The notes below the pieces were generated by a model that saw only the letters and a list, made by a program, of their open reading frames with translations, did not search any database and was not told the origin of the DNA. From Deltaproteobacteria bacterium (GTDB lineage Bacteria > Desulfobacterota > Desulfobacteria > Desulfobacterales > SURF-15), in assembly GCA_024644775.1 (NCBI GenBank), contig JAHEHB010000120.1, positions 1 through 10,150 on the forward strand: DNA of 10,150 nt, read 5' to 3'. The translations under genes were made by a program, and so were the position numbers. Below are positions 932 to 10,150 of the stretch, piece by piece. Every line of letters starts with the position of its first letter. The stretch's first letter is position 1.

Positions 932-1825
932 TTATATTGCAGTATGAGATGATACCTCTGGGGAGAAATTTACGATTCCGCTGATGTCCAGTTCATTGTC
1001 ATATATCCCGAGACTTTCTCCATCAATTCCCAGGCAGAGCCCCAAAAGCTGGGTATAGAGAATCGATGGTAGATGACGCGTTTCACTCCTTTTACTCAGA
1101 AATGTGTTTTGAACCCTGTCGAACTGAAGTTGGCAAAACGGGCAGACAACACATAGATAATCGGCATCGGAATCTAGTGCATCCTCTATTTTTCTTTGGG
1201 TTAAATCCATGGATAGATCGTCATTGATACCCCATAAAGGCGCGCCACAGCATTCACGTTGTTTTGGCCAATCGATGCTCTCGGCTCCTAATATCTCAAC
1301 GAGTTGATCGAATATGGAAGCCGCACCCGTATTTTCAAACCGAACCATTTTGTCGGGACGAATCAGGTGGCACCCGTAATGCGCGGCAATCCTAAGACCG
1401 TTAAAGGGCTTTACCAGAAGTTCTTTTATATGTTCAACACCGATATCTTCATAAAAGATTTCGAGAAGATGCTTCACTTTAATGCTGCCGTCGTATTTTA
1501 ATCCTTCTTTCGCCAGCTTCCTATTAATGTCTTTTCTTAAGGAAGCATCCTCTTTTAAGAGGTGGTCGATATGCGTCATGCTGCCATAGCAACAATTACA
1601 GAGGGTCGTGATATTCAGGTTTTTCTTTTCAGCCAGAGATAGATTTCTAGCCGACAATAGTGCATGAGCCTTAAAATCGACATTTTTCAAGGGATATCCA
1701 CAGCAGTTAAATTCTTTGATATCCACCAAATCCACCCCCAGCTTCCCTAGAACCGCATCTGTAGAGACTTCGTATTGTTTAAGGGAGGCAGCCGTAACGC
1801 AACATCGTAACAATGCAAATTCCAT
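932..1825 (-). CDS. hdrB: HdrB-like CCG-domain protein (heterodisulfide reductase subunit B family)
   Basis: This 297-residue soluble protein has the two cysteine-rich CCG domains of HdrB. Domain one: C9, C41-C42-G43, then C76 and C79, with spacings C-x31-CC-x33-C-x2-C. Domain two: C152 (HYGCHLIRP), C192-C193-G194 (ECCGAPLWG), then C228 and C231 (CPFC), with spacings C-x39-CC-x34-C-x2-C. In methanogen HdrB, each such motif holds one of two non-cubane [4Fe-4S] clusters where disulfide cleavage occurs. Here both motifs are complete, so an active site is likely, but the substrate is unknown; bacteria that make no CoM-S-S-CoB use these proteins with other thiols or purely as electron carriers. 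The last 35 or so residues are an unremarkable tail. The gene lies 107 bases downstream of the membrane HdrC fusion, its likely redox partner. The ribosome binding site is weak (GGAAAA). Confidence 0.88.
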   Translation of the reverse strand: MEFALLRCCVTAASLKQYEVSTDAVLGKLGVDLVDIKEFNCCGYPLKNVDFKAHALLSARNLSLAEKKNLNITTLCNCCYGSMTHIDHLLKEDASLRKDINRKLAKEGLKYDGSIKVKHLLEIFYEDIGVEHIKELLVKPFNGLRIAAHYGCHLIRPDKMVRFENTGAASIFDQLVEILGAESIDWPKQRECCGAPLWGINDDLSMDLTQRKIEDALDSDADYLCVVCPFCQLQFDRVQNTFLSKRSETRHLPSILYTQLLGLCLGIDGESLGIYDNELDISGIVNFSPEVSSHTAI

Positions 1826-1932: not shown

Positions 1933-3720
1933 CTAAACACTTATGGCTTTTTCCCTTGCATTTGAGATTGCCAAGTTCTTTAGCTCATAAAACACATCTG
2001 CAACACACACCCCTTGAGGACAATTTTCCTGACATTCGTAGCAGCCAAGACAACTCCACAACATATTGGAATCGAATATTATATCACCCAGCCCAAAATT
2101 GGCGGCACGAATCATCTGATGCGGTAGCATCCCCAGAGCTTCCAAGGGGTTATTAAAATTTCTTACTACCGGGCAGACCGATGTGCAGGTTGTACAGGCA
2201 AAGCAATAGTTGGACGTTGGACCGGGCAATGATGCCGCCAATCGGTTTTTTAGCCCTTTGTCCATGGATGGTTCACTGATCGTATCGTGGATGCCGATTA
2301 ATTTACTCTCGTCAGCAACTGCCGTTCTGGCCTGCTTTATGGATTTTTGGTAATCCTGTTTTTCGATACGATCTTTCCTCAACCCTCGTTGATATGAAAG
2401 GGTTGAGAGTACCAGCGGCTCTGAATTCTCTTTTTTGAGTGATGCCTCCCTCACATCGAACCAAAGATCCTGAAGATTGATACCGGAAGGACAAACCGTG
2501 GTGCAGCGGTAGCAATTGGTACATAGATAGAGTCCCTCCTGAAGGCTTGTGAGTTCCTGTTTGCTGGGTCTATTTTCCGTTGAAAAAGCCTTTAGTGTGT
2601 CGATTTTAAGGGAGGGCAAGATATTCGGATTGGAAATTTCCTCATAGCTCACCGCAACGGAGCAGTTTAAACTGCATGTTCCGCATCGTGTGCAGGCATC
2701 CAGCTCCAACATTTGCCGGGTGGTAATATTGGAGGGATCGGGGCCTCGTTTATCCAAAGGGGGTTTATTCATAGCGGGTCTATCCATAACCGCGTTTACG
2801 AGAATGCTGATGGGAGTGGAAATGATGTGAAACAGTTTGCTGAACGGTAGATAGGCGAGACCGATAAAACATGCCAAGAAGTGGAGGTACCATAAGAAAG
2901 TGGGGAAATTCACCGTATCCAGTGTTAACGCGATGGGACTCAGAACTTTGGCTGTCAAAAATCCCCCAAAGGCCCAGTTGGGTGACGAATGGCAGCCGGC
3001 ACAACTCTCCTCGTGAATTTCCAGCCCCTGTTCGATAACGTCTTCAGCAAACGGACCGTTTACGTTTGGAGAGACCACAGCGAATTTCTGAACCCAGACA
3101 CTTTCCAGTGCCTTGAGTTCCTCTTCGTCATCCGTACCTGAATATTCCTCCACCATATCTTGATACGCCGAGTAAGATGAAATCTTTGTTCCCTCCAACA
3201 GCAGGCCTGAAAGCATAATTACTGCCAGGATGACGATGGCATAGGTATCCACGGGGTTGGTTTTCAAATGTGAGACATTCAGAATAAACCTTCGATATAT
3301 GGCAATCCCGATCCCTGCAAATACCATGGCACCGAAGAAATCCCTCAGGAAGAAAAAGGGATTCAGTGTGGAGTAATAATCCGAGAAAATCGATGCGGTA
3401 ATCGGTTCTTCCAGAGCATGCATTAACAGGAGCATCATAAATCCCGCAAATATGAGCATGTGCATCAACCAGCGGAGAAAATCTTCCTTGAGAATTCGAT
3501 ATTGAAGGATGACATCACATACAAAAACTTTCAAGAGGGTTCGGATTTTCGCGCTAAATACCGTTGACACCATCCCTTTGGCGGCAGCGGATATTCTCTT
3601 TGGGGAGGTGCTCTCTCCCCGGTCTATATCCAGGTCGTACCGGAACCAGGCTGACACCTTAATGAGAACACCGACTGCGAACACGATAAGGGAAATATAG
3701 AGGCTGATGGTGAAAAACAT
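1933..3720 (-). CDS. Membrane haem b / haem c anchor fused to two HdrC-like [4Fe-4S] modules
   Basis: This 595-residue protein has three parts. Residues 1-310 contain five probable membrane helices (about 5-25, 82-101, 125-147, 159-178, 274-300) as in NarI, DsrM and HdrE. Histidine pairs H87/H101 and H280/H298 are candidate axial ligands for two b haems; the 18-residue spacing of the second pair matches NarI. Residues 179-270 form a hydrophilic loop with one haem c motif, CAGCH (C240, C243, H244). Positive charges after helices 1 and 3 put that loop in the periplasm, as haem c attachment requires. Residues 343-410 form a HdrC-like pair of clusters (C343, C346, C349, C353; C400, C403, C406, C410). 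Residues 506-567 form a second pair (C506, C509, C512, C516; C557, C560, C563, C567). The cytoplasmic iron-sulfur tail probably hands electrons to the HdrB-like protein encoded next. Likely role: electron exchange between the quinone pool or periplasmic cytochromes and the cytoplasmic Hdr machinery. I know no established gene name for this architecture. Confidence 0.87.
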   Translation of the reverse strand: MFFTISLYISLIVFAVGVLIKVSAWFRYDLDIDRGESTSPKRISAAAKGMVSTVFSAKIRTLLKVFVCDVILQYRILKEDFLRWLMHMLIFAGFMMLLLMHALEEPITASIFSDYYSTLNPFFFLRDFFGAMVFAGIGIAIYRRFILNVSHLKTNPVDTYAIVILAVIMLSGLLLEGTKISSYSAYQDMVEEYSGTDDEEELKALESVWVQKFAVVSPNVNGPFAEDVIEQGLEIHEESCAGCHSSPNWAFGGFLTAKVLSPIALTLDTVNFPTFLWYLHFLACFIGLAYLPFSKLFHIISTPISILVNAVMDRPAMNKPPLDKRGPDPSNITTRQMLELDACTRCGTCSLNCSVAVSYEEISNPNILPSLKIDTLKAFSTENRPSKQELTSLQEGLYLCTNCYRCTTVCPSGINLQDLWFDVREASLKKENSEPLVLSTLSYQRGLRKDRIEKQDYQKSIKQARTAVADESKLIGIHDTISEPSMDKGLKNRLAASLPGPTSNYCFACTTCTSVCPVVRNFNNPLEALGMLPHQMIRAANFGLGDIIFDSNMLWSCLGCYECQENCPQGVCVADVFYELKNLAISNAREKAISV

Positions 3721-3968: not shown

Positions 3969-5090
3969 TTAGTCTTTGCCATTTGCCGGTTTTTTTACGA
4001 GCGTGTCCCGATTTATCACGGACTGTTCCCGTTTTTTCTTTGACCATTTCTGTACCTTAGCGGTTACTTCGCCGGCGAACCGGGGATTTTTTGCTAGTGG
4101 ATGGATTTCCACATCCCCCTCACCCCGTGCATGGGCAAAGGCGGCCCGCCCCAAAGGCGTTCGGGCGACGACTGTGGTCCAGCCTTCCTGGGCTGCGATA
4201 CCGCCAAAGGAGATGTCTGCAAATTCAGCGGAGTAGTCGTCACAGTACTGACAGGCGTAGCGACGCATGAATCCCAGTTGGCCCAGCGGGATGGTTCGGA
4301 TTTCACCGTTTTCTAAATGAATGTACAGTTCTTCTTTTATGTTTATTTTTTTTACATCTTCCCAGGAAAAGTCGCCTAGCTTTTCCAGCTCTTCCCTTTG
4401 GGTTTCACTAAAAAAGAAGTTTCCCGAACAGAAGAGGCCCAGGATATAGTTTATTGAGTCTGTCGGAACGATCCCCAAGGTTTCCATCTTCCGGATGGTT
4501 TTGATCTGGCAGGGCGTACCCACCAACGCCACGCGGCGCATTCCTCTGCGGGTCATCTGCCCCAGCATCTGAACGGAAGGCGAATAGGTGGAGTACTGCT
4601 CGCTGTAACGGCTCATGCCGTGGGACGAATCGAAAAAAAAACCGGCTGCCTCGATAATCTCTTGTCGAGAGGTGGCCAGCCACGGCTCACGTTTAAAAAG
4701 CCCGGTGCGGCGAGTGACGATGGCCCCGTCGATGCGACCGGCGTCGAACAGATGCAGAAGCAACGCGGTCACCACTCCGCCATCTGTGGCATGCTGCCGA
4801 ATGCTTTCATTTCCTGCCCGGGCTACGGTCGTTTCCAAAACGCGGCCCATGGGAGGGGCCCATCCGATTCGTTTGCGCGTTTCCTCGTCCAGTTCATCGA
4901 TTTCCGGGCATATCATATGGCAGATGCCGCACTCGATGCATTTTTCCACATCATCGTAGCAAGGTTTTCCCTCGCTATCCTGCTTGAGGGCTCCGAAATT
5001 GATAGCCGTGCAAAAGGTCACGCATCCCCCGCAGTGGTGGCACAACCCTGTTTCCTGAACTTCCTGTATAAGATTTGTAAAGGTTTTCAT
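3969..5090 (-). CDS. FrhB-family protein: coenzyme F420 hydrogenase/dehydrogenase beta subunit-like flavin/iron-sulfur subunit
   Basis: The 373-residue protein opens with two [4Fe-4S] ferredoxin motifs (C17, C20, C23, C27 and C51, C54, C57, C61). The FrhB/FdhB N- and C-terminal domains follow, recognisable from GTPCQIKTIRKM (191-202) and the late C280-x2-C283 motif with ADISFGG (291-297). Family members bind FAD and pass two-electron equivalents between a soluble carrier and iron-sulfur clusters. In methanogens the carrier is F420; bacterial homologues may use NAD(P)H, ferredoxin or another donor, and nothing here settles this. I chose the ATG at 5088-5090 because GGGAGG sits 5 bases upstream; an ATG 33 bases further up lacks this support and would touch the metF stop. 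The metF stop is 29 bases away, so the gene belongs to the metVF unit. It may give the MetVF/HdrA complex a second electron entry or exit. Confidence 0.9.
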   Translation of the reverse strand: MKTFTNLIQEVQETGLCHHCGGCVTFCTAINFGALKQDSEGKPCYDDVEKCIECGICHMICPEIDELDEETRKRIGWAPPMGRVLETTVARAGNESIRQHATDGGVVTALLLHLFDAGRIDGAIVTRRTGLFKREPWLATSRQEIIEAAGFFFDSSHGMSRYSEQYSTYSPSVQMLGQMTRRGMRRVALVGTPCQIKTIRKMETLGIVPTDSINYILGLFCSGNFFFSETQREELEKLGDFSWEDVKKINIKEELYIHLENGEIRTIPLGQLGFMRRYACQYCDDYSAEFADISFGGIAAQEGWTTVVARTPLGRAAFAHARGEGDVEIHPLAKNPRFAGEVTAKVQKWSKKKREQSVINRDTLVKKPANGKD

Positions 5091-5095
5091 GAATT

Positions 5096-5101
5096 CCTCC
5101 C
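5096..5101 (-). promoter_or_regulatory. Strong ribosome binding site deciding the FrhB-like start
   Basis: GGGAGG lies 5 bases before the ATG at 5088-5090. It makes this start preferable to the in-frame ATG at 5121-5123, which overlaps the metF stop codon. Confidence 0.8.
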
Positions 5102-5119
5102 GCCCGCTGAAAAGATGCC

Positions 5120-6052
5120 TCAAGAGATTTGCGGCCTGGGATAGAGGCCTGTTCGTTCAACGATTTCCGGCACCTTTTCCTCCCATTCGATGGCCATTAT
5201 ATGAAAGCCAGCGATACCCGGAACCGCTTTTAACCGTTCAATGGATTCCACGCAAATGTTGATGCCCTCTTCGGGTTGTTTCTCCTTGGGGGTTCCGGCC
5301 ATACGGGCAACGACCTCGTCGGGCACATCCATTCCGGGAACACGGTTTTTCATGTACTTTGCCATACCCGCGGACTTAAACGGTGTGAGTCCGGCCAGAA
5401 TGAAAACCTTTTCGGTGAGCCCCAGATCCCGCACCATCTCCATCCATTTTTCGAACCGATCCAGGTTATAAATACACTGGGTTTGAATGAACTCCACACC
5501 GGCGTTGACCTTTTTGGCCAATCGAAGTGCCCGGATGTGGAATGGATCGGCAAAAGGATTGGCTGCTGCCCCCACAAACATATTCGGCGGTCTTGCGATG
5601 TCGTCGCCTCCGATAAATTTTCCTTCGTCGCGCATATGGCGGACTGCTTGAATGAGCTGGATCGAATCCAGATCGTGAACGTTTTGCCCCTGGGGACAGT
5701 CGCCAAAGCTCTGATGATCGCCGGTAAGACACAGAATGTTATGAATGTCGAACGACGCGGCACCTAAAATGTCGCTTTGCAAACCGATACGGTTCCTGTC
5801 CCGGGTGACCATTTGCAGCACGGGCTCGACTCCCAAGAGCTTGAGTCGAATGCAAGCCGCCAAACTGCACAAGCGGGTAACCGACGTTTGGTTGTCGGTG
5901 ATGTTGATGGCGTCGACATGGTTTTGGATCATCTCTGCCTTTTCGGTGATGGGCTGCGGATCGCTCCCTCGCGGGGGGCCGCATTCGGAGGTGACCGCCA
6001 GATGACCTGCGGTAAGCATTTTTTCCAATTGACTCGGCGTTTTTACGTTCAT
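5120..6052 (-). CDS. metF: Methylenetetrahydrofolate reductase, short form (MetF)
   Basis: MetF is the TIM-barrel FAD enzyme that interconverts 5,10-methylene-THF and 5-methyl-THF in the methyl branch of the Wood-Ljungdahl pathway. The 310 residues match the usual bacterial length. Visible signatures are the N-terminal catalytic glutamate in TSECGPPRG (E23), DAINITDN (47-54), TRDRNR (83-88, flavin-contacting region), LCLTGDH (107-113), and FIQTQCIYNLDRFEKW (188-203), the folate-binding strand. The start ATG (6050-6052) overlaps the metV TGA as ATGA, so the two are translated together. As in the Moorella-type enzyme, the partner MetV and the neighbouring HdrA and MvhD suggest that electrons arrive through iron-sulfur proteins rather than directly from NAD(P)H. 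The reaction can run either way; in a sulfate reducer oxidising acetate or alkanes it would oxidise methyl-THF. Confidence 0.95.
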   Translation of the reverse strand: MNVKTPSQLEKMLTAGHLAVTSECGPPRGSDPQPITEKAEMIQNHVDAINITDNQTSVTRLCSLAACIRLKLLGVEPVLQMVTRDRNRIGLQSDILGAASFDIHNILCLTGDHQSFGDCPQGQNVHDLDSIQLIQAVRHMRDEGKFIGGDDIARPPNMFVGAAANPFADPFHIRALRLAKKVNAGVEFIQTQCIYNLDRFEKWMEMVRDLGLTEKVFILAGLTPFKSAGMAKYMKNRVPGMDVPDEVVARMAGTPKEKQPEEGINICVESIERLKAVPGIAGFHIMAIEWEEKVPEIVERTGLYPRPQIS

Positions 6053-6717
6053 GTTTCCAGATCCTCATGGAAAAGTTTTCGGGGGCCGCCATCCCGGCTT
6101 GTGGACCAGTCCTTTAACGGTACGACTTTTACGAAATCGTCCAGCTGTCCAAGCGCCTCTAAACGGTCGACGACCAGTTGCCAGGCGCAGTCGATTTCCT
6201 TGTTGATTTCGCATTTACCTTTGGTGGAACCGCCGCAGGGTCCATTGAGAAGCCTCTTGGCACAACGGGACATGACACAGATTCCGGCAGTGAGATCGAG
6301 GATGCATTTACCGCAGGCCTGGCAGCTCTCCGTAAACAGACCCGGTTTTTCAACATCCCCTAAAAAAGTGGTATCCAGTCCGGGATACACCCGCAGGGAG
6401 GCGTATCTTTTCACCATAAACTGAACACCTACGCCGCAGGCAATGCTCAATACGGCGTCAGCCCACTCGATATCTTTTTCGGCAGAATCGAAAAACTCAT
6501 GCTCACACTGCCGTTCGATGCCCGAGTTTCGGATGTCTATCGGAACCTTTTCTTGGGTAGCCCGCATCCGAAGAAGTGAAGCCAGTATTTCAGCCTCTTT
6601 GTTCCCTCCCTCGTGACAAACCGCCACACAGGTGTTACAGCCAAACACCAGGAGTTTTCCAAACCCTTTTACACTGTTCCAGATTTCGTCAAGGGGTTTT
6701 TGTTTACCCATGATCAT
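6049..6717 (-). CDS. metV: MetV, zinc/iron-sulfur partner of methylenetetrahydrofolate reductase
   Basis: MetV is the small subunit that contacts MetF and passes electrons to it. The 222 residues contain an N-terminal C27-x2-C30-x3-C34 cluster (VFGCNTCVAVCHEGG), C71, C94, and the highly typical C-terminal stretch with C132, C135, C138, then GICVMSRCAKRLLNGPCGG (C147, C152, C161). Later cysteines are C169 and C177. The C-terminal domain is the family's MTHFR C-terminal (MTHFR_C) domain. I chose the ATG at 6715-6717 because GGAGG lies 8 bases upstream; a GTG nine bases earlier overlaps that site. The gene overlaps the end of mvhD by 14 bases and metF by 4 bases, a tightly coupled set. Confidence 0.93.
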   Translation of the reverse strand: MIMGKQKPLDEIWNSVKGFGKLLVFGCNTCVAVCHEGGNKEAEILASLLRMRATQEKVPIDIRNSGIERQCEHEFFDSAEKDIEWADAVLSIACGVGVQFMVKRYASLRVYPGLDTTFLGDVEKPGLFTESCQACGKCILDLTAGICVMSRCAKRLLNGPCGGSTKGKCEINKEIDCAWQLVVDRLEALGQLDDFVKVVPLKDWSTSRDGGPRKLFHEDLET

Positions 6718-7228
6718 TTGAGCCACCTCCTTTTTTGCGCCATTCGCGCAAGGCCAGAAAAATCGGTGATGGTCCGAGTGTTCGGATCTTTTGTGTGAAA
6801 TCGGTACAGATATCCGCCCATTTGGGTCCTTCGGCTGCCGACAGGTTAAACATCTCGAGCCTATCCGCTTCTATGTTTACCGTTTGTAGCAGTTTTTTTA
6901 GTTTTTCCACTCTTTTGTTTGCGTGAACATTTCCTTCCAGGAAATGACATTCCCCATCCAGTCACCCAGCCACAAAAACGCCGTCTATGCCCTTCTCAAA
7001 TGCCCGCAGAACAGATAAATGATCGATTTTGCCACTGCACGGCAGGCGGATGATCCTCACATTCGGCGAATAGGCGAGCCGCATCACCCCAGCCAGGTCT
7101 GCCGCACCAAAGGCACAGAAGTGACAGGCAAAGGCGATGATTCTGGGTTCCCAATCCGATGGAATATCATGGGCCGTTTCCACTCGGGGCACGATCGGAG
7201 CGTCGGTTGCTTGGTTTTGCTGCTCCAT
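6704..7228 (-). CDS. mvhD: MvhD-type [2Fe-2S] electron-transfer subunit, probable selenoprotein (TGA at 6962-6964 read as Sec89)
   Basis: MvhD carries a [2Fe-2S] cluster and delivers electrons to HdrA. Taken at face value the gene stops at TGA 6962-6964 after ...GIDGVFVAG. Reading on in the same frame gives LDGECHFLEGN and a normal MvhD C-terminus (VEKLKKLLQTVN, then IRTLGPSPIF) to TAA at 6704-6706. The total is 174 residues. The TGA falls exactly where the family has cysteine, in its GCxxGxCH signature. The other expected cysteines are present: C35 and C38 (FACHFCAFGAADLAG), C64 (LPCSGKID) and C94. Selenocysteine versions of MvhD (VhuD) are known from methanococci, and bacterial ones have been reported. 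A hairpin downstream of the TGA supports recoding. The start has AGAGG 7 bases upstream. About 25 residues precede the conserved core. Automated annotation would probably split this into two pieces or call it broken. Confidence 0.9.
6726..6730 (-). promoter_or_regulatory. Ribosome binding site deciding the metV start
   Basis: GGAGG (plus strand CCTCC) lies inside the 3' end of mvhD, 8 bases before the ATG at 6715-6717. It overlaps the alternative GTG at 6724-6726, which is therefore unlikely to be the start. Confidence 0.75.
6928..6946 (-). ncRNA. Putative bacterial SECIS hairpin for mvhD
   Basis: The minus strand reads CATTTCCTGGAAGGAAATG: a perfect 7-bp stem (CATTTCC/GGAAATG), or 8 bp if the inner T-A pair forms, capped by a loop containing GGA. 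It begins 15 bases after the in-frame TGA. Bacterial SECIS elements lie inside the coding region within a few dozen bases of the UGA and present a G-rich (GG) apical loop to SelB. Position and loop both fit. The stem also encodes conserved MvhD residues (CHFLEGN), so structure and coding overlap. Confidence 0.7.
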
Positions 7229-7425: not shown

Positions 7426-10150
7426 TCAAGCACCGTCCGCATAAGCATCCACCATGGCGATGATTTGATCATCCCGGGCGTTTTGAACCTGAAATGCCTT
7501 GGCCGGGCAGATGCCTGCGCAGATCCCGCACCCCGTGCATTTGACCTCGTTGTGGCTGACTCTGCCGTCCTCATCGACGTAAATGGCCCCAAAAGGGCAG
7601 GCGCGATAACACGCCAGACAGGACATACATAGATCCCTATCGTGTTTGGCGATGGTGCCGGGGAGTGTCAATGTGTTTTTCGAAAGCAATACACTCGCAC
7701 GACCGGCAGCGGCCAGTGCCTGAGCGATCGTCTCTTCGACGGGCTTGGGATAATGGCACAAACCGGCTGCAAAAATGCCGTCTGCACTCAAGTCCACAGG
7801 GCGGAGCTTTGGGTGGGCTTCGTTTAAAAAACCATCCGCGTTTATCCCGCACTTGTAAAGCTCCACCAGGTTTTGGTTATCCTGCCGCGCGACAAGGGCC
7901 GATGCTAAAACCAGATAATCCACCCGTATCTTTAATTGCCTTTGCAGGATGGGGTCTAACGTCTGCACAATGAGCTCACCGTCTTCAACAAAAACCTCGG
8001 GTTTACGATCAATGGAAAAGCGAATAAACATCACACCGATTTCCCGCGCCTGACGGTAAAGATCTTCGCGCTCGCCGTAGGTGCGTATGTCTCGATAGAA
8101 AATATACACATGACAATCAGGATTTTCTGTTTTTACTTCAATGGCGTTTTTAACCGAATGGGTGCAGCAAATCCGGCTGCAATAGGGTCTTTCGGAATCA
8201 CGCGAACCGACACATTGAATATAGGCGATCGCCCGACTATTTTTCGTTGACGATGTATTCGAAGGACTTGTAACCCAATCGTCAAACTCCAGGTGAGTCA
8301 TGACTCGATCATCTTCGCCGTACAGGTATTCAGATGGTCGGTATTCCAACGCGCCGGTGGCGATAATGGCGGCCCCGTGCTGTATTTCGTGAATGGTGCC
8401 GTTTGCATCGATCCTGCTAACGAAATTGCCGACAGAGCCGGACGCAGATTCCAAAACGGCTTTTTTGTAAACCGTGACATTCGGATGCTGTTCTACCCGA
8501 GAGACGATATCTGCGAGCATCGTCGGTATGGGCTCGCCCCGCCATGTGGTCTTCAGTTTTTGTGCATTGCCGCCCAGGTTGTCTTCCTGTTCGAGCAATA
8601 CCGTCTGAAAGCCTTGATCGGCAACACCCAAAGCCGCCGTCATGCCGGCGATACCCCCGCCGATGACCAAAGCGCTCTGGACCACATTGACGGTAATCTC
8701 GGGAAGGGCATCGGCCAACGTCACTTTGGCTAAGGCCATGCGAACCAGATCTTTTGCCTTTGCCGTGGCCGCTTCCGGTTCGGTCTGGTGAACCCAGGAA
8801 TCTTGGTTGCGAATATTGGCCATCTCTATAAGATAGCCGTTTATTCCGGATTCTTTTAATGTGTCCTGGAATAACGGTTCGTGGGTGCGGGGCGAGCATG
8901 CGGCGATCACGACCCGGTTGAGATTGTGTTCCTGGATCTTCTCTGTGATGAGATTTTGGGTGTCTGTGGAGCAGGTAAACATATTGTTTTCTGCATAAAC
9001 CACATGGGGCAGGGTCTCTGCGTATTCGGTGACGGCCGCAACATCCACCACACCGGCGATGTTGATGCCGCAGGAGCACACAAAAATACCCGCCCGGGGC
9101 TCTTGGCCTATCACGTCCCGCTCGTCAGGGTAATCCTTTTTCTTTGCAAGCGTTCCCCGGGCAGAAGCCAAGGCACCGGCCGAAACCGCTGCAGCGGCCG
9201 AGGCTTCCGTTACAGACTGGGGTATATCTTTAGGCCCGGACATGGCACCGGTAACGTAGATGCCTTGGCGATTTGACGACACCGGATCAAAACTGGTTGT
9301 TTCCAAAAAACGATACTTGTTTTGCTGCAATTCCAGCCGCTTTGAAATTTCTTCAGCGGTTCTGGGGGCCTCGAGCCCTATGGACAGGACGGCCATGTCG
9401 AATTCCTCATCCAACCGCTCTCCGGAATCCATTACGTAGCTCATGGAAACACCGGCGTGGTTTTTCCCGGCCAAAACGATGTGGGGCATGGTTCGCAGAA
9501 ATCGGACGCCGCTTTCCTTGGCCCTTTCGTAAAAACGCTCAAATTCCTTTCCGTGGCTGCGAATGTCCATAAAAAAGATCGTCATTTCCGGATGATCGGT
9601 TGTCAGGTGCTCGGCGGTTACCAGCGCTTGTTTGATGGCGTACATGCAGCATACCGCAGAACAGTAACCGTTGGTGCAGCGGTTGGTGTTTCTGGATCCC
9701 ACGCATTGAATCCAGGCGATTTTTTGCGGTTCTTTGTTGTCCGAGGGACGGACCAAATGTCCCATACAAGGACCATTGGCCGAAAGCAGTCGCTCGAATT
9801 CGAGTCCCGTAACAAGATCGGGGATTTTCGGATAGCCGAAATTATCTAGGGTTGACGGATCAAACGGAGAAAATCCCGAGGTCAGTATCACCGCACCCAC
9901 ATCGACCGTGATTTCTTTTTCGCTATCGTCAAAGTTGATGGCATTGGTGGGACAAAATTTTTCGCAGGCTTTGCACCGTCCTTTTTGAAGATAAATGCAA
10001 TTTTCCCCATCGATGACATACTTAAGGGGCACGGTCTGTCCGTATTTGATGTAAGCGACTTTTCTTTTACCCATGCCGGCGTTAAAAACATCGTCCACCT
10101 TTCGGGGACATTTGTCGGCGCATTGGCCGCAGGCGATACACTTTTCAGGA
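7426..10150 (-). CDS. hdrA: Double HdrA-type flavin/iron-sulfur protein, 5' end outside the window
   Basis: HdrA is the flavin protein at the centre of electron bifurcation or confurcation in Hdr complexes. The 907 codons visible (numbered from the right edge) contain two HdrA-like halves. Half one, residues 1 to about 350, begins inside the ferredoxin insert (C4, C7, C10, C14; C51, C59, C62, C66). It continues through the FAD-domain part with AVILTSGF and WIQCVGSR, then CSAVCCMYAIKQA, and has no C-terminal ferredoxin. Half two starts near residue 353 with AGIFVCSCGINIAG, the HdrA N-terminal cluster domain, including VVIAACSPRTHEP and MANIRNQDSWVH. Next come GGGIAGMTAA (497-506, FAD dinucleotide fold), a second YIQCVGSRD, and two C-terminal [4Fe-4S] motifs (C841, C844, C847, C851, and CTGCGICAGICP). 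It lacks the internal ferredoxin insert. The open frame continues past the right edge, so the GTG at 10096-10098 is not the start. Gene order places it first in the unit with mvhD and metVF. Confidence 0.92.
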   Translation of the reverse strand, partial: PEKCIACGQCADKCPRKVDDVFNAGMGKRKVAYIKYGQTVPLKYVIDGENCIYLQKGRCKACEKFCPTNAINFDDSEKEITVDVGAVILTSGFSPFDPSTLDNFGYPKIPDLVTGLEFERLLSANGPCMGHLVRPSDNKEPQKIAWIQCVGSRNTNRCTNGYCSAVCCMYAIKQALVTAEHLTTDHPEMTIFFMDIRSHGKEFERFYERAKESGVRFLRTMPHIVLAGKNHAGVSMSYVMDSGERLDEEFDMAVLSIGLEAPRTAEEISKRLELQQNKYRFLETTSFDPVSSNRQGIYVTGAMSGPKDIPQSVTEASAAAAVSAGALASARGTLAKKKDYPDERDVIGQEPRAGIFVCSCGINIAGVVDVAAVTEYAETLPHVVYAENNMFTCSTDTQNLITEKIQEHNLNRVVIAACSPRTHEPLFQDTLKESGINGYLIEMANIRNQDSWVHQTEPEAATAKAKDLVRMALAKVTLADALPEITVNVVQSALVIGGGIAGMTAALGVADQGFQTVLLEQEDNLGGNAQKLKTTWRGEPIPTMLADIVSRVEQHPNVTVYKKAVLESASGSVGNFVSRIDANGTIHEIQHGAAIIATGALEYRPSEYLYGEDDRVMTHLEFDDWVTSPSNTSSTKNSRAIAYIQCVGSRDSERPYCSRICCTHSVKNAIEVKTENPDCHVYIFYRDIRTYGEREDLYRQAREIGVMFIRFSIDRKPEVFVEDGELIVQTLDPILQRQLKIRVDYLVLASALVARQDNQNLVELYKCGINADGFLNEAHPKLRPVDLSADGIFAAGLCHYPKPVEETIAQALAAAGRASVLLSKNTLTLPGTIAKHDRDLCMSCLACYRACPFGAIYVDEDGRVSHNEVKCTGCGICAGICPAKAFQVQNARDDQIIAMVDAYADGA

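What the first reader, a model, noticed from the sequence alone, without database searches (positions are those of the whole stretch)
6704..7228. MvhD is interrupted by TGA exactly at a conserved cysteine: probable selenoprotein in a MetVF operon
Seen directly: the frame is open on both sides of TGA 6962-6964, and the codons after it give conserved MvhD sequence (ECHFLEGN). The TGA replaces the first Cys of the family's GCxxGxCH motif. Established: selenocysteine MvhD (VhuD) exists in Methanococcales and has been reported in some deltaproteobacteria. Inference: the ligand or near-ligand of the [2Fe-2S] site is Sec, which would change its potential or rate in a methylenetetrahydrofolate reductase complex. 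The usual GCHxGDCH is GULDGECH here, itself a divergent version. Automatic gene calling would miss the full gene.
Basis: partly seen in the sequence, partly recalled or inferred. Interest (0 to 1): 0.8.

Follow-up and report, generated by a model that had tools for sequence, protein, structure and literature searches.

The report
Selenocysteine MvhD in a MetVF operon
A small iron-sulfur electron-carrier protein in a folate-pathway (carbon-fixation type) gene cluster very probably carries the rare amino acid selenocysteine where relatives have cysteine; it is a well-supported new member of a selenoprotein family already known from sulfate reducers and methanogens.

Summary
The selenoprotein reading is strongly supported by comparison. 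TGA stands in that codon in 9 of 9 closest named-genome loci. In 39 distinct genes with TGA there (window included) a hairpin just downstream keeps at least 6 of 7 pairs in 39 and all 7 in 36; where residue 89 is Cys, 16 and 4 of 99. For the same encoded peptide, full stems are 35 of 36 against 1 of 12, and stem pairs change together. Each of 24 tested genomes with such a gene holds at least two of selA, selB and tRNA-Sec. TGA ends three other genes of the window. The window's own genome is not held, and its hairpin taken alone is unremarkable. The family is a known selenoprotein family, so this is a new member. Less expected: in 138 genes compared, selenocysteine stands at residue 38 (41) or residue 89 (39), each with its own hairpin, never at both, though one solved chain has non-standard residues at both.

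The parts
6704..7228 (-). mvhD-like gene (FlpD, PF02662), 174 aa with TGA read as Sec; ATG 7228, TAA 6706-6704
6962..6964 (-). in-frame TGA = residue 89, at the first Cys of GCxxGxCH
   Evidence: same codon TGA in 9 of 9 closest named-genome loci
6928..6946 (-). bacterial SECIS-like hairpin: arms 6946-6939 and 6935-6928, loop GGA 6938-6936, 15 nt between the TGA and the 5' arm
   Evidence: fold of the window alone -10.1 kcal/mol, z -0.66
7426..10149 (-). HdrA-like FAD/Fe-S protein, cut by the window edge; ends in TGA
6049..6726 (-). MetV-like protein (PF12225); likelier start ATG 6717, with GGAGG 6730-6726 inside the end of mvhD (read from the sequence); ends in TGA
5120..6052 (-). MetF, methylenetetrahydrofolate reductase (PF02219); ends in TGA
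3969..5123 (-). FrhB/FdhB-like subunit with 4Fe-4S motifs (PF04432, PF04422)
   Evidence: a homologue follows MetF in L009
1933..3720 (-). HdrD/HdrF-like protein: 4Fe-4S domains and a NarI-type match (PF02665, 24 bits); likely membrane-bound
932..1825 (-). HdrB-like CCG-domain protein (PF02754, two stretches)

Best explanation
The gene encodes a selenocysteine-containing MvhD (FlpD/FrhD/VhuD family). SelB with Sec-tRNA-Sec reads the hairpin at 6946-6928 just 3' of the UGA and inserts Sec at residue 89 (inferred from comparison, not measured). MvhD is a small [2Fe-2S] protein that wires HdrA to a partner oxidoreductase; here the partner is most likely MetVF, so the complex would move electrons between an HdrA flavin hub and methylene-/methyl-tetrahydrofolate in the Wood-Ljungdahl methyl branch (inferred from gene order and from Hdr-Mvh and Moorella-type complexes). 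Residue 89 follows a beta strand directly, as do Cys35 and Cys64 at the ends of theirs, so it probably lies at the cluster face as ligand or neighbour and tunes the cluster (inference).
For: One internal TGA in the seven genes examined, at a family Cys. TGA in the same codon in 9 of 9 closest named-genome loci, TGC/TGT in the 15 motif matches of L010-L022; L023-L025 gave no motif match. In the draw from the phylum of G003 the 19 best matches (58% identity or more) all hold TGA, at column 89 in all 19. Hairpin: 39 of 39 distinct Sec89 genes keep at least 6 of 7 pairs, 36 all 7; of 99 genes with Cys89, 16 keep at least 6 and 4 all 7; peptide-matched 35 of 36 against 1 of 12 full stems, Fisher 6e-9 (related genes are not independent). 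Pair 22-32 is A-T in 30 and T-A in 9, 3 changes on the tree; pair 25-29 flips to A-T in L009. Machinery in the 24 Sec89 genomes tested (of 38 in the census): selA 22, selB 21, tRNA-Sec at 64 bits or more 21; each of the 24 has at least two of the three. TGA is the stop of HdrA, MetV and MetF. MetV lies within 900 nt downstream in 42 of 44 Sec89 rows, duplicates included, one of them at 862 nt. A solved chain of the family, 9sfi_K, has X (a non-standard residue) in the same column.
Against: The window's own genome is not held. The window hairpin alone is ordinary, and 48 of 384 synonymous codings of HFLEGN make a full stem when G-U is allowed. Two Sec89 genes (L027, L084) lack the pair next to the loop and L068 the outermost counted pair. 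Close relatives with Cys89 exist in the same clade: in the tree with 30 database rows, the smallest starred set holding the window has 30 Sec89 genes and 26 database rows, at least 23 of them Cys, so Sec is not indispensable. Genomes with Cys-only loci also have Sec genes in part: selA 5 of 10, selB 4 of 10, tRNA-Sec at 69 bits or more in 2 of 5 (G010, G013). No protein evidence.
Confidence: 0.95

Rival explanations
1. The TGA is a real stop: the gene is a pseudogene or the base is a sequencing/assembly error, and an 88-aa fragment is made.
For: Plain ORF calling gives the 88-aa ORF; Cys versions of this clade exist.
Against: TGA at the same codon in 39 distinct genes, with the downstream frame and a dedicated hairpin kept; an error or decay would not recur at one codon.
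Confidence: 0.02
2. The organism reads TGA as an ordinary sense codon (Trp or Gly) throughout.
For: Two database relatives show W at this column.
Against: HdrA, MetV and MetF of the window end in TGA and the other six genes examined have no internal TGA. In the census the column is Cys or TGA.
Confidence: 0.01
3. Sec is inserted, but this MvhD does not serve MetVF; it wires HdrA to another partner, such as the FrhB-like subunit.
For: An FrhB-like gene follows MetF here and in L009; FdhB/ElpB-MvhD-Hdr arms are known in archaea (passages).
Against: MetV lies within 900 nt downstream of MvhD in 42 of 44 Sec89 rows, whereas L002-L007, which run on for kilobases past MetF, show no FrhB match after it at E 1e-10.
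Confidence: 0.15

Closest known systems
Bacterial Sec-containing FrhD/MvhD, e.g. Desulfobacterium autotrophicum HRM2 mvhD1/2/3/5, Desulfococcus multivorans mvhD, Syntrophobacter fumaroxidans FrhD
   Same: Same family with Sec in place of Cys (passages); mvhD beside hdrA or hdrL in HRM2; SECIS stated for D. multivorans
   Different: The passages do not say which Cys is replaced. A 2026 review gives the motif as CxxU, which fits column 38 here; the window has column 89
VhuD-type chain PDB 9sfi_K (probably of a methanogen; the call names no organism)
   Same: Same family; X in the same column as residue 89
   Different: It also has X in column 38 and shows ECAF where the window has ECHF. Archaeal SECIS elements are sought in 3' UTRs (passages), not beside the UGA
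HdrABC-MvhD-MetVF methylenetetrahydrofolate reductase of Moorella thermoacetica and relatives
   Same: hdrA and mvhD next to metV and metF
   Different: No HdrC was identified here, and FrhB-like, HdrD-like and HdrB-like genes follow MetF. Whether Moorella's MetVF-linked MvhD is the Sec FrhD listed for it in 2006 was not settled; Mock et al. 2014 is not held

Membership tests
Selenoproteins of the MvhD/FrhD/VhuD family | FlpD domain (PF02662) | tested here: met
   E 1.1e-47, profile 1-123 of 123
Selenoproteins of the MvhD/FrhD/VhuD family | In-frame UGA at a family Cys | tested here: met
Selenoproteins of the MvhD/FrhD/VhuD family | Bacterial SECIS hairpin directly 3' of the UGA | tested here: met
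   Met by comparison across genes; not significant on the window alone. bSECISearch was not available; Rfam gave no SECIS match
Selenoproteins of the MvhD/FrhD/VhuD family | selA, selB, tRNA-Sec in the same genome | not testable with these tools
   Own genome not held; present in relatives; selD not searched
Selenoproteins of the MvhD/FrhD/VhuD family | Sec found in the protein | not testable with these tools
   Needs mass spectrometry or 75Se
HdrABC-MvhD-MetVF complex | HdrA, MvhD, MetV, MetF adjacent and codirectional | tested here: met
HdrABC-MvhD-MetVF complex | HdrB and HdrC in the cluster | tested here: inconclusive
   HdrB-like gene at 932-1825; no separate HdrC identified; the window ends inside HdrA
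HdrABC-MvhD-MetVF complex | Physical complex and enzyme activity | not testable with these tools
   Needs purification
MvhD fold | Fold of solved MvhD chains | tested here: met

The most novel reading that the evidence does not exclude
Bacterial MvhD has two interchangeable Sec sites, residue 38 (CxxU) and residue 89 (GU), on the same cluster face. Each has its own in-gene hairpin, mostly built round the same core CCTGG(A/C)AGG; lineages carry one or the other but not both, so one Sec at either place is what the electron-transfer step rewards.
Probability: 0.4. Interest if true: 0.55.

Novelty: new member of a known kind. Interest (0 to 1): 0.4.

Why it matters
It adds to a known selenoprotein family a clade, present in Nitrospirota-like and Desulfobacterota-like genomes, in which the MvhD beside methylenetetrahydrofolate reductase has Sec at residue 89. 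Natural Sec38, Sec89 and Cys versions of one small protein make a ready test of what selenium does beside a [2Fe-2S] cluster. Plain ORF calling cuts this gene at residue 88, so such genes are easily lost from metagenome annotation.

Tried and rejected
Plus-strand reading: several stops. Rfam on the window: three matches, all far below gathering score, none a SECIS. Own-genome machinery: no genome held. Altered code and pseudogene: rejected. Other Sec genes in the window: none of the other six genes examined has an internal TGA; the cut GntR-like gene at 3-314 was not examined that way. Bulk folding energy of the 39 nt examined after the codon separates Sec89 genes modestly (mean z -1.40 against -0.26 and -0.32 at the same place in Sec38 and Cys genes) and hardly separates Sec38 genes at their site (-0.39 against -0.20 and -0.05); the fixed-stem count was then used. 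My motif pattern was wrong and printed no match; it was corrected. Cluster ligands of MvhD: not stated in the passages read, so ligand status stays an inference. No paper on 9SFI or 9T1S was listed, and 9sfi is not among the rows.

Papers: 15 were opened, all by 'find', so I saw passages only. In the searches and in those passages I did not see Sec at residue 89 alone described for bacterial MvhD, nor the one-of-two-sites pattern. Most subscription papers and supplements were out of reach, so this is weak evidence of novelty.

Limits of the census: L001-L025 come; L026-L055 are the best 30 rows; L056-L085 the best 30 rows; L086-L145 the next 60 rows in listing order. Later rows were not fetched. 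L024 and L025 gave no match; L023 (poor match) and five duplicates (L028, L031, L056, L057, L058) were dropped, leaving 138 genes with the window. The trees are quick ones on 132 columns with many open forks. With 30 database rows added, the least number of state changes rises from 8 to 18 (two W rows left out, one row with a gap at the column counted as Cys).

Full report
What is there. The feature lies on the minus strand. From ATG 7228 a frame runs to TAA 6706-6704 with one in-frame TGA at 6964-6962, residue 89. The read-through product has the whole FlpD domain (PF02662, E 1.1e-47, residues 30-152). In the same direction lie an HdrA-like protein (cut by the window edge), MetV, MetF, an FrhB-like protein, an HdrD-like protein and an HdrB-like protein. 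HdrA, MetV and MetF end in TGA, and none of the six other genes examined has an internal stop, so TGA works as a stop in this organism.

Is the TGA conserved? Of 25 loci that encode a relative in the named genome collection, the nine closest (L001-L009, titled Nitrospiraceae, Nitrospirae, Thermodesulfovibrionia, Deltaproteobacteria and one plain 'Bacterium') all have TGA in this codon; L010-L022 gave 15 motif matches, all TGC or TGT; L023-L025 gave none. In a draw of 295 genomes of the phylum of G003, 37 have a match at E 1e-35 or better; the 19 best matches (58% identity or more) all contain TGA, and the next rows have 47% identity or less. In a draw of 395 genomes of the phylum of G008, 337 have a match at E 1e-30 or better; of the 90 best rows of that call that I examined, 41 have TGA at column 38, 14 at column 89 and 35 at neither.

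Two sites. I mapped the codons of the five conserved Cys columns: 35, 38, 64 and 94 are invariant and 89 nearly invariant in an alignment of 23 of the 120 listed database relatives, window included. After dropping five duplicates and one poor match, 138 genes remain: 58 with five Cys, 41 with TGA at column 38 only, 39 with TGA at column 89 only (window included), none with both. No TGA falls on columns 35, 64 or 94. The first site fits the CxxU motif of a 2026 review (PMC13188914, passages). On a quick tree of 132 columns, the two site columns left out, the window lies in a set of 30 Sec89 genes (SH-aLRT 99); the three states need at least 8 changes, and the Sec89 label alone 3. L088 (Sec89) sits beside Sec38 genes (support 88) and L084 (Sec89) among Cys genes (99), so the site has probably arisen more than once. 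The loci are the window's nearest relatives, not a random sample, and related genes are not independent, so 'never both' rests on few independent lineages. The solved chain 9sfi_K has X at both columns, so both is possible.

Clade mates with Cys. The protein database gives many close relatives with Cys at 89. With its best 30 rows added to the tree, 26 of them fall with the 30 Sec89 genes in one starred set; at least 23 of the 26 have Cys (27 Cys, two W and one gap among the 30), and the least number of state changes rises to 18. Sec and Cys thus seem to exchange often within the clade. The database is probably biased against TGA genes, since gene callers stop there (inference).

Hairpin. Fifteen nucleotides after the UGA begins CATTTCCT-GGA-AGGAAATG (6946-6928). 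Of 39 distinct Sec89 genes, 39 keep at least six of seven counted pairs and 36 all seven; of 99 genes with Cys89, 16 keep at least six and 4 all seven. Among genes that encode the same HFLEGN or HYLEGN, 35 of 36 Sec89 genes and 1 of 12 Cys89 genes have the full stem (Fisher 6e-9). The F/Y change (TTC/TAC) comes with the matching silent GGA/GGT change: pair 22-32 is T-A in 9 and A-T in 30, with 3 changes on the tree; in L009 a Leu-to-Gln and a Glu-to-Asp change keep pair 25-29; in L027 and L084 that pair is lost, in L069 it is T-G, and L068 lacks the outermost counted pair. Sec38 genes have their own stem at their own site (GCGGACCTGGCAGGTTC): 41 of 41 keep at least six pairs (32 all seven), against 2 of 97 other genes and 1 of 33 peptide-matched genes with Cys38 (Fisher 4e-20). 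Crosswise, 0 of 39 Sec89 genes have six pairs at the 38 site and 1 of 41 Sec38 genes has the full stem at the 89 site. Most hairpins of both kinds share the core CCTGG(A/C)AGG. Against: the window hairpin alone does not stand out (z -0.66), 48 of 384 synonymous codings of HFLEGN give a full stem when G-U is allowed, and folding energy separates the groups only weakly.

Machinery. The window's genome is not held. I tested 24 of the 38 genomes with a Sec89 gene: selA over its cut-off in 22 (not G218, G113), selB over its cut-off in 21 (not G006, G293, G078), tRNA-Sec at 64 bits or more in 21 (G001 has a 50.5-bit match at a contig end, G008 46.6 bits, G002 41.3 bits; second matches in other genomes reach 52.9 bits, so values near 50 are unsure). 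Each of the 24 has at least two of the three. Ten genomes with Cys-only loci have selA in 5 and selB over the cut-off in 4, and two of five have tRNA-Sec at 69 bits or more, so machinery is not confined to Sec89 genomes. selD was not searched.

What is known. FrhD/MvhD is an old bacterial selenoprotein family: 19 sequences with three Sec-to-Cys and three Cys-to-Sec events in 2006, Moorella thermoacetica listed with Sec FrhD and HdrA (PMC1794560, passages); 131 in 53 organisms in 2016 (PMC5029168, passage); named in D. autotrophicum (PMC2702500, passages) and D. multivorans (PMC5109826, passages). The window gene is therefore a new member. Sec at residue 89 alone in bacteria, and the one-of-two-sites pattern, I did not see in the searches and passages listed under Tried and rejected; the library lacks most subscription papers.

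Noticed in passing
L044, L051-L055 and 35 of L086-L145 (41 genes): Many MetVF-linked MvhD genes of the phylum of G008 carry TGA at column 38 instead of 89, followed by a nearly frozen hairpin GCGGACCTGGCAGGTTC.
   Followed up: yes
P0002, P0011: Database proteins with Trp at the Sec column, presumably TGA read as Trp by an annotation pipeline.
   Followed up: partly
window 6704-6730, minus strand: The likely MetV start and ribosome-binding site lie inside the end of mvhD, so MetV translation may depend on passage through the UGA.
   Followed up: no
window 1933-3720, minus strand: HdrD/HdrF-like protein with a NarI-type match and a CxxCH motif (ESCAGCH), which could link the cluster to the quinone pool (the link is inferred).
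   Followed up: no
L084 (genome G572): TGA at column 89 in a distant MvhD (46% identity, no MetV found in the stretch held), among Cys relatives: likely a separate gain; its loop is GTC instead of GGA.
   Followed up: partly
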